From the NCBI GenBank assembly GCA_036784855.1, contig JAZDSV010000018.1, positions 62,001 through 126,000 on the forward strand: a stretch of 64,000 bases of DNA. The letters are read 5' to 3'. Below, one piece after another: positions 1,894 through 6,387 of this stretch. Position 1 is the stretch's first letter. The number at the start of each line of letters is the position of its first letter. The stretch comes from Aphelidium insulamus. Its lineage: Eukaryota > Aphelidiomycota > Aphelidea > Aphelidiaceae. Both the position numbers and the translations under genes were made by a program. The notes beneath the pieces are model-generated. The model saw only the letters and a program-made list of their open reading frames with translations, was not told the DNA's origin and ran no database searches.

Positions 1894-2657
1894 TTATTGC
1901 ACTGCCATGTCTTGGTCTTGGTTGACGGCCCCAGTTCGCCGTGCCAAGAATGCCGCCACGTCCTGCTGCGACGGCACCGTGTCCAGATAGAGCGCCTTGC
2001 CACCGGCAAATGGATTGCGCTCAGCCGCGGCCACTTTATGATAGTTAGATAATTTATACGCATAATGCATATACACAAGAACTATTTGTGCATACCGTTG
2101 AGGCGCTGTTCAGCCTCTGCCTCCACCTGCAGCAGTATACCGTCATCATCATCACGGTAGCCATAGTAGTCGGCATCCACGCGACGGTTCAGATCCGAGC
2201 GCGACTTTTGCGGCGGTCCAGCCGGCGCCTTTTCAAATAGCTCACGCACACCCGGCAGATCCCGCGCCCGTCCAAAGTACCGATAGCCGCTATTCCCACC
2301 CGGCACCTCTTTGCCGTCGGCGTCGAGCATTTTCCCCGCGTGACGCCTGTAATCCGGCCCGCCCAGCTCCCGGATCCGGTGCTCCCACGCCGATTTCTTC
2401 CGTATGAGCCGGTTGATCTCGTCGTTCAGGTCCCGGATCTGCTGCTCGCCCATGGTGGCGTCGTTGATGCGCGAGATCTTGCGGCCGATCTCCGTGAGCA
2501 GCTCGAAGCGCACCTCCTCGCAGTCGCGGATGGAACTCACTTCCGACGTCCAGGACGGTATGCGCTTCTTCGGGTCCTTGATGACGCCCATGTCCACCAG
2601 TTGCTGCTCGCGGAACCGGAACAGCATGGACTGTGCCTTCTCTTGGTTGCGCGCCAT
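1894..2657 (-). CDS. ISY1: ISY1 pre-mRNA splicing factor
   Basis: Exons 2657-2096 and 2033-1894 (minus strand) are joined over a 62-nt intron whose acceptor is preceded by a CTAAC branch-like motif. They give 233 residues. The N-terminus MARNQEKAQ, the central RIRDLNDEINRLIRKK-like helix, the LGGPDYRR motif, the GYRYFGRARDLPGVRELFE block and the VPSQQ motif in the second exon match the ISY1 family closely. ISY1 belongs to the NineTeen/XAB2 complex and sits near the catalytic RNA core of the spliceosome in the first transesterification step. The acidic C-terminal region is shorter than in human ISY1. The start ATG coincides with the universal start of the family. Confidence 0.95.
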
Positions 2658-3278
2658 ATTGTAGATGTATTGTAGATGTAGATGTAGTTGTGTGTGTAAA
2701 ATAGAAAAAAATCCGCGAGAATGCACACTGCGAGGATTGAACCATGTGCGTAGAAGACAGCGTGTATGAGTATTAAAATTCGCGAAAACAGTTGGCAACC
2801 CGTTGGCCCAATTGGGCGGGCGCGGCGCCACGGGGAAGCCGGACAGTCGCCATCAGGAGCAATCAGGCATGGCACACATTTGTTGTGACCACATTTTACT
2901 CTTGGGTTAAGGTCTGAGTAGGCAGCATATAGTCGCGTTCAGAATGCAGGCTCTGAAGTGGGCCGGCGCATCAACAGTGATGTTGCCGCCACTGTTCAGA
3001 CACGCGTAACAGTGTGTCTGTGACAGTGTGTGCGGGTGAGACACGGTGCGCCGCTGCTGTGATCTATGCAGTGCAATTGGCGATATTCGCGCTTGTCGTG
3101 AACAACTCAATTCAGACTATCATCCGGCTTCCTCCCCCACCCTTTTTGGGCCTGCCTACATACTTGTGGTATTCGTAGTGCGCGCTTTCACTTGGCATAT
3201 AGTAGGTTGCCTTTATGGTGATACATGTATGGCAGTTTTTTTTACTGGTCTGTTCTATTATATCCCGGATGGCGCAGG
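2658..3278. other. Intergenic region, 5' of ISY1 and 3' of the GTPBP3-like gene
   Basis: About 620 bp with no coding sequence I can support. Short frames on both strands show no family similarity and no plausible splice partners. It should contain the ISY1 promoter and the 3' end of the GTPBP3-like transcript. Confidence 0.5.
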
Positions 3279-5575
3279 TTACGCTAATTGCGCCTGCATC
3301 TGCTTCTTCTTCAGCACACCGTACTTGCTGTGGTATAGGAAACGACCGGCATCGGCCACCTTTTGCCCGTCGATTATTGACGCGAGGGACTTTTGAACCT
3401 GTGCCACAGCTTCCGCCGATATTTGTTCACTGGATAGCAGCCGAGAGCAAGTGGTCAAGTTGGCCACGCGCTCTGACGGCATATCCAGGTCGCCAGTGTT
3501 CACGCCGCCGTATCGAGTCTGCAGTATGGCGGACAGGTCGCCCAGGAACTCGTCAATACCGTGGCCAGTGGTGCAGCTGATGGCCCACACACCCATTGGC
3601 TGCACGTTGGAGTACTCGCGTATTCGCTCAAAAAGCTCCTGCATGGTCTCCTCCTTGGGCGCCACCACGAACTCTGTCTCGCCGGGGATCCGGGTGCGCA
3701 CCACACGGAATGCCTCGCGCGCAATATCCTCCCGCACACCGCCCCCGATCTCAAACAGGATCTTGCGGTTGGGCACCTTGGCCTCCCAGTGGCTGAATGC
3801 GCCCTTGCCCTTGCCCATGCGCACACCGAGCGGCTTGGCCGACATGGGGTGGTCCGGCTGCACACGCAACCAGAACCGCCCGCCCTTAACCTCCTTGACG
3901 TGGCGGTGCAGGGTGGCGCGGCACTCCTGCAGACACTTGTCCGTCAGGCGCAGGTCGTGCAGCGCGCGCAGTCCATAGTCGCCGAACTCGACGTGGTTGC
4001 CGGTGGTGTCGCCGTCCGTGCGCAGCGGGACCTTGCCGCGGAACGCCGACCGGTTCACGTCGCCCCCCTGCGGCCCCAGCGGGGCGTTCTTGTAGCGCGT
4101 CTTGCTGGGCGGTGCGGGTGTCCGGATGCGCACCAGATCCGACTTGTTCACCAGCACGATGGTGTCCGAGTCGATGGAGGCGAGGACACTGGGGTCGATG
4201 GCGGCGGCCGACTTGTTGGCGTAGATGGTCTCCATGTCCAGCACGCAAATCTTGATGTCGGCGCTGTGGAGGCGGTGGGTGGTTGCGGTGTGCGGCTGGA
4301 TTCCCCTGGCGAAGCCGACAGTGTCTGCCAGCACCACGGGCCACTCGTCAATCTGCAGCGGTGTTTCGTGCACGCATTCAGTCGGCTCCGGTGCTGATTT
4401 GCCGGCGTCGCCCTTTTGTGCTGAGAAACCATTTTAGTCACACTGCTATACGGCTGACACACGGCTGCACTTACCCAGCAAGTTCAGGAGGGACGTCTTG
4501 CCGGCACCGCCCGATCCAAACAGAGCTACGTGGACGCCGCCTCGGCGAGTGTCTGACCGCCGACTGTCTCGCAAGTGCTGTGCTATAGCTCCGCCAACCA
4601 CTCCCATGGAAGCATTGACTAGGATGCATGATCAGGTATTGTCTTGTATAATATGCTAGATGAACAAACCGTATTTATGAATTAGCGGGACAACGCTTTC
4701 ACTTGCGGGCGTGGCAGCAAGCAGTTTCCGGCAGCGATCAGCTTCAGCACTCCATGCGCCATACAGAAAGTCGATGCCGACCTATAATCATGTCAATATA
4801 TATTTATATATATATATATATATATATATAACACTACATTGTACGCACCCCGACAGAATGAAGTTGTTGGCGACGCTCTTCCTCGGTGGCCGAGGAGAGC
4901 AAAGCGGTGTTCTCGCTAAACAGTGCCGGCTCCAACGCGGCGCGCTTTCTCAACACACTGCATAGTGGCATTTAGTACATTATATATCAGCAGTAGAAGT
5001 ATGTGTACCGCTCTTGCAGCTCACGTTCGCCGACGGTAAACAGGCCGCTGCCAGACGCTTCAACGGCAGCCAGCAGAGCGATTAGAGAGCGCTCATTGTC
5101 GCACAGAATCTCCACCGTGTCCTCGCCCGTCCAGCTGCTCATTCGGGGTAGAAATACGGCGAGCGATGTGGGATCGCCACGCACGGCCAGCGCAACCGGA
5201 CGGTCCTGGGCGGCAAGCTGCGACGCGCCCAGTTGTCGCGCCGTCTAAGAATTCAGAGAAGTAGATATAGCAATGTAGCCACCCCACCTGAAGCGCGCGA
5301 GGCCCAACCACACACAAGCGACCACCACTCGGCGAGCCAGTCAGCGGGAGACGCGCCAACAGCGTGCCACGGTGCAGCTCCTCCGCCGCGAACGGATCCT
5401 CAAATACGGGCTTGATGGTATTGGGAAGCGACGGCGCGCCACCACCACCACCCACGCGTACCTCGGTGGCCATACCGGCGCGACCACCACCCGCGACCAG
5501 CAGACGGCGGCGGCCACCATACAACGCGGCGGCCAGGCGGCATCGCGCCCAAAGCGACGCGGCCACAATTGGCAT
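3279..5575 (-). CDS. GTPBP3: GTPBP3/MnmE-like mitochondrial tRNA-modification GTPase with nested uL16m domain
   Basis: Six exons (5575-5288, 5244-5009, 4957-4849, 4781-4703, 4618-4475, 4420-3279) encode 665 residues. Family members (MnmE, GTPBP3) make the 5-taurinomethyl/carboxymethylaminomethyl modification at U34 of mitochondrial tRNAs with MTO1/MnmG. Seen here: an Arg/Ala-rich N-terminus suited to mitochondrial import; a TrmE N-domain with WTGEDTVEI; a helix like that before the human G domain; P-loop GSGGAGKTS (about 272-280); G3 DTVG (about 318-321); G4 NKSD (about 377-380); G5-like ISCTTGHG; then a helical tail. Between G4 and G5 lies a complete uL16m domain (about 390-541) in the same frame, explaining the excess over the roughly 490 residues of human GTPBP3. 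The GTTRD G2 motif and the C-terminal FCIGK motif are not visible. All exon phases close. Confidence 0.88.
3654..4106 (-). other. Mitochondrial ribosomal protein uL16m domain inserted within the GTPase
   Basis: This 453-bp segment of exon 6 encodes a bacterial/mitochondrial L16 domain. It starts with the SKTRYKN block, followed by FGDYGLRAL, GGRFWLRVQPD, the L16 signature RMGKGKG with W five residues later, ILFEIGG and EDIAREAFR. uL16 is an essential large-subunit protein near the A-site tRNA and peptidyl-transferase centre. The segment has no start codon of its own at its beginning and no stop codon at its end, and it is read in frame from the GTPase G4 motif upstream to the G5 region downstream. 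I see no other uL16m gene in the window. The domain identity is strong; whether it works fused, cleaved or spliced is unknown. Confidence 0.9.
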
Positions 5576-5598: not shown

Positions 5599-6387
5599 AT
5601 GGCGTACTTCCTCCCGCATGTAAGTTGGCGTCGTCTGCTTTGGCCTTGCAGAGCGCGTTCCTCGCACCTATTGCCTATATACTCATCTTTATGTCTCACG
5701 GAGCCTAGCTCACAAATGGCTGGCAAGTGGACCAGGCCATTCTGAGCGAGGAGGACCGCGTGGTGATGATCCGGTTCGGCCACGACTGGGACGCCGAGTG
5801 CATGCGCATGGATGAGACGCTGTACGGCATTGCGGAGAAGGTCAAGAACTTTGCCGTCATCTATCTGGTGGACATTACCGCCGTGCCCGACTTTAACAAG
5901 ATGTATGAGCTGTACGACGCATGCACGGTGCGTTCACATCAATATCTATATGTGATATCATGCTATGTATATCTGTACAGATATATATATATATATGTAT
6001 ATGTTTGTATGTATATTTACGTATGTGCACGTATCTGTGTTTACTTATGTAGTTATCTATGTGGATTCTTTGTACGATTATGCGGAATGTGTGTGTATGT
6101 AAATATAGTTGCACATGTTGCTGATGGGCTTCTGCATGCGGTATCGAACACCGTGCAATCTATCCTCTGCTATTTTACATTATTGAAATCATCTGCAGGT
6201 TATGTTCTTTTTCCGCAACAAGCACATTATGATCGATTTGGGCACAGGCAACAATAACAAGATCAACTGGGCCATAACGAACAAGGAGGAGCTGATCGAC
6301 ATTGTGGACTGTGTATTCCGAGGCGCGCGCAAAGGTCGCGGTCTCGTCGTGGCGCCAAAGGACTACTCGACAAAATATCGTTATTAA
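5599..6387 (+). CDS. TXNL4A: DIM1/TXNL4A U5 snRNP protein
   Basis: Exons 5599-5619, 5709-5927 and 6199-6387 encode 142 residues, exactly the family length. The protein starts MAYFLPH and continues through NGWQVDQAILSEEDRVV, the thioredoxin-like FGHDWD segment, VDITAVPDFNKMYELYD, VMFFFRNKHIMIDLGTG and the C-terminal GARKGRGLVV...STKYRY block, nearly identical to Dim1/Dib1 across eukaryotes. The family lacks the thioredoxin CxxC and sits in U5 and the tri-snRNP, where it must leave for spliceosome activation. Intron 1 is 89 nt. Intron 2 (5928-6198, 271 nt) is long for this genome and contains a TA/TG-rich stretch. Start and stop agree with the family. Confidence 0.97.

What the first reader, a model, noticed from the sequence alone, without database searches (positions are those of the whole stretch)
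3279..5575. uL16m ribosomal protein nested inside the G domain of a GTPBP3/MnmE GTPase
A complete mitochondrial L16 domain, including the RMGKGKG signature, is read in the same frame between the G4 (NKSD) and G5-like (ISCTTGHG) motifs of a tRNA-modification GTPase. In MnmE/GTPBP3 only a short helix lies there. This would tie a wobble-uridine modification enzyme physically to a core large-subunit protein of the mitoribosome. I know of no such nested fusion. Either the fused protein sits in the mitoribosome, or it is cut or spliced to give two products.
Basis: partly seen in the sequence, partly recalled or inferred. Interest (0 to 1): 0.92.

Follow-up and report, generated by a model that had tools for sequence, protein, structure and literature searches.

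The report
Ribosome protein nested inside a GTPase
In what appears to be an aphelid (a parasite of algae, close to fungi) and its relatives, a core protein of the mitochondrial ribosome is encoded in the middle of the gene for an old tRNA-modifying enzyme, so both seem to be made as one protein; the enzyme half seems to have lost its original job and probably rides on the ribosome.

Summary
On the minus strand, six exons (5575-3279) encode a 676-residue MnmE/GTPBP3-derived protein. A complete bacterial-type uL16 (residues about 402-550) lies between G4 (NKSD) and helix alpha4/G5, in one uninterrupted exon. Eleven other proteins have the same insertion at the same point; one is from Amoeboaphelidium protococcarum. 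The 12 form one group in a uL16 tree (100/99), and the linker is as conserved as uL16 itself. Cutting uL16 out in silico improves the MnmE-profile E-value in 12 of 12. So it is one ancient domain insertion, not an assembly error. In the held draft genome I found no other bacterial-type uL16, no second MnmE and no MnmG/MTO1, MnmE's partner; MTU1 and an EF-Tu were found as controls. MnmE's catalytic FC(V/I/L)GK end is missing in 9 of 9 family members that reach the C-terminus, and three have lost G3. Best reading: the fusion is the only uL16m and sits in the mitoribosome; wobble-uridine modification is lost; the MnmE part persists as a nucleotide-binding or structural appendage. No structure model or RNA data could be obtained. 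My literature searches found no report of it.

The parts
3279..5575 (-). Fused gene: 676-aa MnmE/GTPBP3-derived protein with nested uL16; stop codon at 3281-3279
   Evidence: Gene model; homology across exons
5288..5575 (-). Exon 1: start, basic acid-free N-terminus (5 K/R, 0 D/E in first 30 residues; presequence-like by my judgement, no predictor run), start of TrmE_N-like domain
5009..5244 (-). Exon 2: TrmE_N-like domain with WTGED motif
4849..4957 (-). Exon 3: first helical part
4670..4781 (-). Exon 4: first helical part
4475..4618 (-). Exon 5: end of helical part and G1/P-loop (GSGGAGKT at 4517-4494)
3279..4420 (-). Exon 6: G3, G4, linker, uL16, alpha4/G5 and C-terminal segment, no intron
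4311..4325 (-). G3 DTVGF
4137..4148 (-). G4 NKSD
4107..4136 (-). Entry linker LVRIRTPAPP; G4+linker mean pairwise identity 0.69 over 66 pairs
3660..4106 (-). Complete uL16 domain, residues 402-550, mean pairwise identity 0.69 over 66 pairs
3801..3821 (-). uL16 signature RMGKGKG (12 of 12 family members have RMG[K/R]GK[G/A])
3609..3659 (-). G domain resumes: alpha4-like segment PKEETMQELFERIREYS
   Evidence: MnmE profile continuous across the in-silico cut
3558..3581 (-). G5-like ISCTTGHG
3312..3335 (-). C-terminal YHSKYGVL where MnmE has FC(V/I/L)GK; catalytic Cys motif absent
   Evidence: motif function from PMC12397908 (passages)

Best explanation
In an ancestor of aphelids the mature coding part of uL16m was inserted once into the MnmE/GTPBP3 gene, exactly between G4 and helix alpha4 of the G domain. 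The product is one imported polypeptide whose nested domain is the only uL16m, so it has to sit in the mitochondrial large subunit, with the MnmE-derived domains outside it as an appendage (shown: anatomy, conservation, single copy in one draft genome; inferred: one mature polypeptide, import, ribosome residence). The tRNA-modifying role was lost together with MnmG and the catalytic C-terminus (strongly suggested by sequence). The appendage persists because both halves of the G domain hold uL16 and because the N-terminus supplies the presequence; where the P-loop and G4 survive it probably binds GTP or GDP as a structural cofactor or slow switch beside the A-site region, as GDP does in mS29 (inferred, about 0.4 on its own).
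For: Same insertion point and segment length (154-157 residues) in 12 of 12; removing the segment improves the full-sequence E-value of a plain-MnmE profile in 12 of 12 (window 1e-17 to 4.6e-21; P0075 5.2e-39 to 3.3e-42; weakest P0008 0.32 to 0.012). One group in the uL16 tree, 100/99, in 100% of 200 bootstrap trees. G4+linker identity 0.69, equal to uL16 0.69, above G1-G3 0.34 and C-helical 0.25. PF00252 finds only this gene and one that reads as cytosolic RPL10; P0075 as query finds only this locus. MnmG: TIGR00136 best E 0.27, at a gene that reads as a pyridine nucleotide-disulphide type flavoprotein; PF01134 only its FAD-binding start; PF13932, the MnmG C-terminal domain, 0 matches, against 9 of 14 control genomes. 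Found with the same tool: MTU1 (275.9 bits), EF-Tu (E 2e-104). FC(V/I/L/M)GK in 24 of 24 plain MnmE aligned (of 53 hits), in 0 of 9 fused proteins that reach that end; the Cys is crucial and MnmG works with it (PMC12397908 passages). mS29 precedent: PMC11106087 passages.
Against: No RNA or protein data: one mature polypeptide is inferred. G1, G3 and G4 are all intact in four relatives (P0075, P0001, P0003, P0004) and in the window, so a GTPase role may remain. MnmG absence was tested in one unnamed draft genome; the published assembly that I think closest has 91.4% single-copy BUSCOs (PMC10608142 passages), so a gap is possible. TIGR00450 and PF10396 did not ring on the window gene itself, so a very divergent second MnmE could be missed. 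For the 364-aa window ORF alone the best GTPase profile was HflX (1.3e-4), MnmE second (8.6e-4); MnmE is clear only with the full model and the relatives. In the tree the fused uL16 segments lie nearer the six bacterial-type rows (91/88) than the fungal-type uL16m rows, midpoint-rooted, so descent from uL16m is inferred. Structure prediction failed, so compatibility of the two folds is untested.
Confidence: 0.68

Rival explanations
1. The fused protein is still a functional enzyme: the MnmE half modifies wobble uridines (perhaps with an unrecognised partner) while docked on the ribosome through uL16.
For: P-loop GK[S/T] kept in 7 of 7 that cover G1; NKxD in 10 of 12; DTVG in 8 of 11 that cover it; MTU1, which acts on the same base (recalled), is present.
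Against: No MnmG found; FC(V/I/L)GK absent in 9 of 9, only P0008 has a lone Cys near that place; TrmE_N weak (P0075 E 1.2e-6, just below the curated cut-off; no match in the window genome).
Confidence: 0.08
2. Two products: alternative splicing or proteolysis separates uL16m from a MnmE-like GTPase.
For: One in-frame GT donor (CTG|GTGCGC) just after NKSD pairs with 10 in-frame AG acceptors in the stretch scanned; protein cleavage cannot be excluded from sequence.
Against: The putative intron would be 456-534 nt against 43-67 nt for the five modelled ones; its 5' edge would encode the linker IRxPxPPxKIR, which has I, R, P, P, K and R invariant in 12 of 12; without MnmG a free MnmE has no task that I know of.
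Confidence: 0.12
3. The MnmE moiety is pure baggage: it does nothing beyond targeting, and survives only because deleting it would need two simultaneous cuts. This shares every step with the best explanation except the last, so the two odds overlap.
For: Fast-diverging N- and C-terminal parts (0.20 over 10 pairs and 0.25 over 36 pairs against 0.69 for uL16 over 66); G3 lost in P0008, P0009, P0010; G4 altered in P0008 and P0009.
Against: P-loop GK[S/T] kept in 7 of 7 even where G3 is gone; the five proteins that reach both ends (window, P0075, P0004, P0009, P0010) all keep N-terminal, G and C-terminal parts.
Confidence: 0.3
4. Assembly or frame artefact.
For: None found.
Against: Eleven other sequences, one from a named species, with the same join; a 1142-nt open exon with high GC3 throughout (0.83, 0.91, 0.70).
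Confidence: 0.01

Closest known systems
MnmE / GTPBP3 / Mss1 (tRNA U34 modification GTPase)
   Same: TrmE_N-like N-terminus, split helical domain, G domain with G1, G3, G4, G5 in order; PRK05291 MnmE E 2.7e-39 for P0075 and 8e-43 for P0003; PDB MnmE chains 9hip and 1xzp matched by P0075
   Different: About 156-residue uL16 inserted after G4; catalytic FC(V/I/L)GK motif gone; partner MnmG not found; I know of no MnmE with an inserted ribosomal protein (recall)
uL16m / MRPL16 (mitoribosomal large-subunit protein)
   Same: Whole mature domain incl. RMGKGKG; best PDB match of P0075 is the mitochondrial uL16m chain 3j6b_K (E 4.7e-24); only bacterial-type uL16 found in the genome
   Different: No own start or presequence; flanked on both sides by G-domain halves
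mS29/DAP3 (GTPase-like mitoribosomal protein)
   Same: A G-nucleotide-binding fold built into the mitoribosome; there GDP stabilises and GTPase activity is dispensable (PMC11106087 passages)
   Different: Small subunit, separate gene, another family (recall); not nested with a universal ribosomal protein
RbgA/GTPBP7 and GTPBP8 (GTPases needed for uL16m assembly)
   Same: GTPases that act at the step where uL16m joins the large subunit (PMC10654211 passages)
   Different: Free factors; a gene that reads as Mtg1 is still present here (L027), so the fusion has not simply replaced it

Membership tests
MnmE/GTPBP3 | Overall MnmE profile match through N-domain, helical and G domain | tested here: met
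   PRK05291 E 2.7e-39 (P0075 60-390; below that model's curated cut-off of 380 bits); window residues 123-394 iE 1e-16 with a plain-MnmE profile; weak for P0007, P0008, P0009
MnmE/GTPBP3 | Contiguous G domain G1-G3-G4-G5 | tested here: not met
   Interrupted after G4 by uL16 in 12 of 12
MnmE/GTPBP3 | C-terminal FC(V/I/L)GK with catalytic Cys | tested here: not met
   Absent in 9 of 9 that reach the C-terminus; present in 24 of 24 plain MnmE aligned, of 53 hits
MnmE/GTPBP3 | Partner MnmG/MTO1 in the genome | tested here: not met
   TIGR00136 best E 0.27 over profile 1-31 (the gene reads as another flavoprotein); PF01134 seven matches, all within profile 1-37; PF13932 none; one draft genome
MnmE/GTPBP3 | K+-coordinating Asn in the P-loop (xNxGK; role recalled) | tested here: inconclusive
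   Kept in 5 of 7, lost in window and P0009
MnmE/GTPBP3 | U34 modification activity | not testable with these tools
   Needs tRNA mass spectrometry
uL16m | Full L16 profile and RMGKGKG signature | tested here: met
   Pfam E 2.9e-35, profile 16-132 of 132; NCBIfam rplP 112.5 bits over cut-off 76.85
uL16m | Only bacterial-type uL16 gene in the nuclear assembly | tested here: met
   the other gene hit reads as cytosolic RPL10 (name recalled). mtDNA is not in the assembly
uL16m | Groups with mitochondrial rather than bacterial uL16 in a tree | tested here: inconclusive
   Midpoint-rooted tree places the 12 with the six bacterial-type rows (91/88), not with the fungal-type rows
uL16m | Present in the mitoribosome | not testable with these tools
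   Needs proteomics or cryo-EM

The most novel reading that the evidence does not exclude
Aphelid mitoribosomes carry a built-in, nucleotide-responsive GTPase module: uL16m brings its own G domain to the A-site region, where GTP or GDP binding gates uL16m loading or large-subunit function. A retired tRNA-modifying enzyme has become a regulatory part of the ribosome.
Probability: 0.25. Interest if true: 0.9.

Novelty: new variant of a known kind. Interest (0 to 1): 0.8.

Why it matters
Enzymes co-opted into mitoribosomes are known (recalled), but I know of no case (recall, plus the ten searches listed) in which a universal ribosomal protein is nested inside a GTPase domain and kept so across a group. 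It is a one-off domain insertion that coincides with apparent loss of the MnmE-MnmG pathway in the genome tested, a candidate shared character of aphelids, and a direct test of whether a G domain can fold around, and ride on, uL16, the protein whose loading normally depends on separate GTPases.

Tried and rejected
Assembly error, pseudogene and chance: rejected on 11 relatives. A second uL16m or GTPBP3: not found. The C139 hit reads as a DRG-type GTPase (name recalled). A hidden MnmG: the one TIGR00136 match (C9) reads as a soluble transhydrogenase-like flavoprotein and the top PF01134 match (C97) as an amine-oxidase-like one (names recalled); the other five PF01134 matches were not read. Replacement of Mtg1 by the fusion: a gene that reads as Mtg1 is still there, so rejected. 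Relaxed selection from identity differences alone: not claimed, because plain MnmE also evolves faster than L16 (recalled); I rely on motif losses. Alignment A2 put the C-terminal halves of plain MnmE over uL16, so it served only to read the FC(x)GK ends and as input for a structure job that never finished. Taxon of the window: inferred as an aphelid, probably Aphelidium, from homology to A. protococcarum, genome size and GC; not proven. mtDNA was sought for its tRNAs but COX1 is not in the assembly. Literature: ten searches over CC-licensed PMC papers; their listings showed no report; I saw passages only of five papers and no paper whole.

Full report
What is there. The minus strand from 5575 to 3279 reads as a six-exon gene for a 676-residue protein. 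Introns are 43, 51, 67, 51 and 54 nt, all GT..AG, chosen by eye. The exon 1-5 part aligns with relatives as one stretch (P0004: residues 52-296, E 1e-28; also P0010, P0003 and P0075; P0009 gave no BLASTP hit; profile of those five: residues 53-284, E 8e-30). Exon 6 (4420-3279) is a single open stretch with G3 (DTVG), G4 (NKSD), the linker LVRIRTPAPP, a complete uL16 with RMGKGKG, an alpha4-like helix, a G5-like ISCTTGHG and a C-terminal segment. The uL16 part of the 364-aa ORF matches Pfam Ribosomal_L16 at 2.9e-35 and NCBIfam rplP above its cut-off. For that ORF alone the GTPase identity is weak: HflX E 1.3e-4, MnmE E 8.6e-4. It is firm with the full model: a profile from 53 plain MnmE proteins covers residues 123-394 at iE 1e-16.

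It is not unique. Two searches found 11 further proteins with the same architecture: P0001-P0010 and P0075. In one search these score 504-693 bits and the best plain L16 scores 127 (best 120 of 390 hits listed). Not all are complete: P0002, P0005, P0006, P0007 and P0008 begin beyond G1, P0001 begins in the helical part and P0003 in the N-domain; P0005, P0006 and P0007 end soon after G5. P0075 (686 aa) is the clearest: MnmE profile residues 60-390, then L16 413-535, TrmE_N E 1.2e-6 (29.1 bits, cut-off 29.8), PDB matches to mitochondrial uL16m (3j6b_K, 4.7e-24) and to MnmE 9hip and 1xzp.

One ancient insertion. The segment is 154-157 residues at the same point in 12 of 12. Cutting it out in silico improves the plain-MnmE profile E-value in 12 of 12. 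In eight (window, P0075, P0001, P0002, P0003, P0004, P0005, P0010) the match becomes one stretch from before G4 to beyond G5; in P0007 and P0008 it is one short or weak stretch; P0006 and P0009 remain in pieces. The uL16 segments of the 12 form one group against 15 plain uL16/L16 rows, which I picked from the hits, with support 100/99. In that midpoint-rooted tree the group lies beside six bacterial-type rows (91/88) rather than the fungal-type uL16m rows, and the window exon's best PDB match is bacterial-type, marginally ahead of mitochondrial uL16m; so descent from uL16m is my inference from single copy and host, not a tree result. Mean pairwise identity is 0.69 for uL16 and 0.69 for G4 plus linker (66 pairs each), 0.49 for G3-G4 and 0.45 for alpha4-G5 (66 each), 0.34 for G1-G3 (41 pairs), 0.25 for the first helical part (15 pairs) and the C-terminal part (36 pairs) and 0.20 for the N-domain (10 pairs). 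A linker conserved as amino acids argues that it is translated, not spliced out.

Genome context. The held genome is 17.95 Mb in 169 contigs. PF00252 gives three matches: this gene, and two exons of one gene on C96 that read as cytosolic RPL10 (name recalled). Searching with P0075 gives only this locus. TIGR00450 gives nine weak matches, none the window gene and none over the cut-off; PF10396 gives none; so a highly divergent second MnmE could be missed, an ordinary one hardly. MnmG: TIGR00136 gives one match, E 0.27, profile 1-31 of 616, in a gene that reads as another flavoprotein; PF01134 gives seven, all within profile 1-37, two above that family's cut-off; PF13932, the MnmG C-terminal domain, gives none while 9 of 14 control genomes ring. 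For sensitivity, MTU1/MnmA is found with 275.9 bits and an EF-Tu at 2e-104, below its family cut-off of 522.4 bits as a gene in two pieces. The assembly lacks COX1, hence probably the mtDNA. The window is probably from Aphelidium: a published A. insulamus assembly has 18.9 Mb, 52% GC and 91.4% single-copy BUSCOs (PMC10608142, passages); this is inference.

What the MnmE half can still do. MnmE works in a complex with MnmG, and its C-terminal FC(V/I/L)GK cysteine is crucial (PMC12397908, passages). The motif, in the form FC(V/I/L/M)GK, is present in 24 of 24 plain MnmE rows that I aligned (of 53 hits) and FC(V/I/L)GK in 0 of 9 fused proteins that reach that end; P0008 alone has a Cys at or next to the place. 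P-loop GK[S/T]: 7 of 7 that cover it; Asn of xNxGK: 5 of 7 (not the window, not P0009); DTVG: 8 of 11 (lost in P0008, P0009, P0010); NKxD: 10 of 12 (NQRD in P0008, TKRD in P0009). The window protein also lacks a recognisable G2. So tRNA modification was probably lost in the common ancestor, while nucleotide binding was kept longer and is fading in some lines.

Mechanism. Shown: one gene, one exon across the join, conserved join, only bacterial-type uL16 found. Inferred: the protein is imported, the uL16 part docks in the mitochondrial large subunit, and the MnmE domains remain outside as an appendage. uL16m is a late-joining protein of the A-site region, and its loading depends on the GTPases GTPBP7/RbgA and GTPBP8 (PMC10654211, passages); a gene that reads as Mtg1 is still present, so the appendage has not simply replaced it. 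In human mS29, a G-nucleotide-binding mitoribosomal protein, GDP stabilises and GTPase activity is not needed (PMC11106087, passages); that is the model I favour where the P-loop and G4 survive. Pure baggage is the main rival. Two products by splicing would need a 456-534 nt intron with donor GTGCGC, far longer than the 43-67 nt introns of the gene.

Limits. No RNA, protein or structure evidence. The structure jobs were interrupted and the tool then switched off. Loss of MnmG was tested in one draft genome only. No report of the fusion showed in the listings of ten searches of CC-licensed PMC papers; most subscription papers, including a main aphelid genome paper (recalled), are not in that library.

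Noticed in passing
window 2834-3132 (+): Nuclear RNase P RNA (RF00009, 76 bits, E 7.7e-20, full model 1-301) lies just beyond the fused gene's 3' end, on the other strand.
   Followed up: no
L013/L014 (G000 C53:243941-245266): MTU1/MnmA, the U34 thiolase, is kept although MnmG was not found: a genome that may make s2U34 without the C5 group.
   Followed up: partly
window 2082-2831 (-) and 5727-6257 (+): Neighbouring ORFs read as ISY1-like and DIM1/TXNL4A-like spliceosomal proteins (names recalled); the DIM1-like ORF points away from the fused gene, about 150 bases from its ATG.
   Followed up: no
G000 C37:14806-15663 and C134:5240-5800: Two contigs carry a NUG1/GNL3-like gene with a long identical translated stretch; the C134 frame differs after it: perhaps alleles or an assembly duplicate (name recalled).
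   Followed up: no
L012 (G000 C9:8531-8623 and flanks): Intron-free genes that read as a soluble transhydrogenase and a bacterial outer-membrane-like protein: contig C9 may be bacterial contamination (names recalled).
   Followed up: no
P0014 and P0016: Other unusual precomputed architectures with L16: PF05193 and PF00300 in P0014, PF07650 and PF00189 in P0016; may be gene-prediction joins.
   Followed up: no
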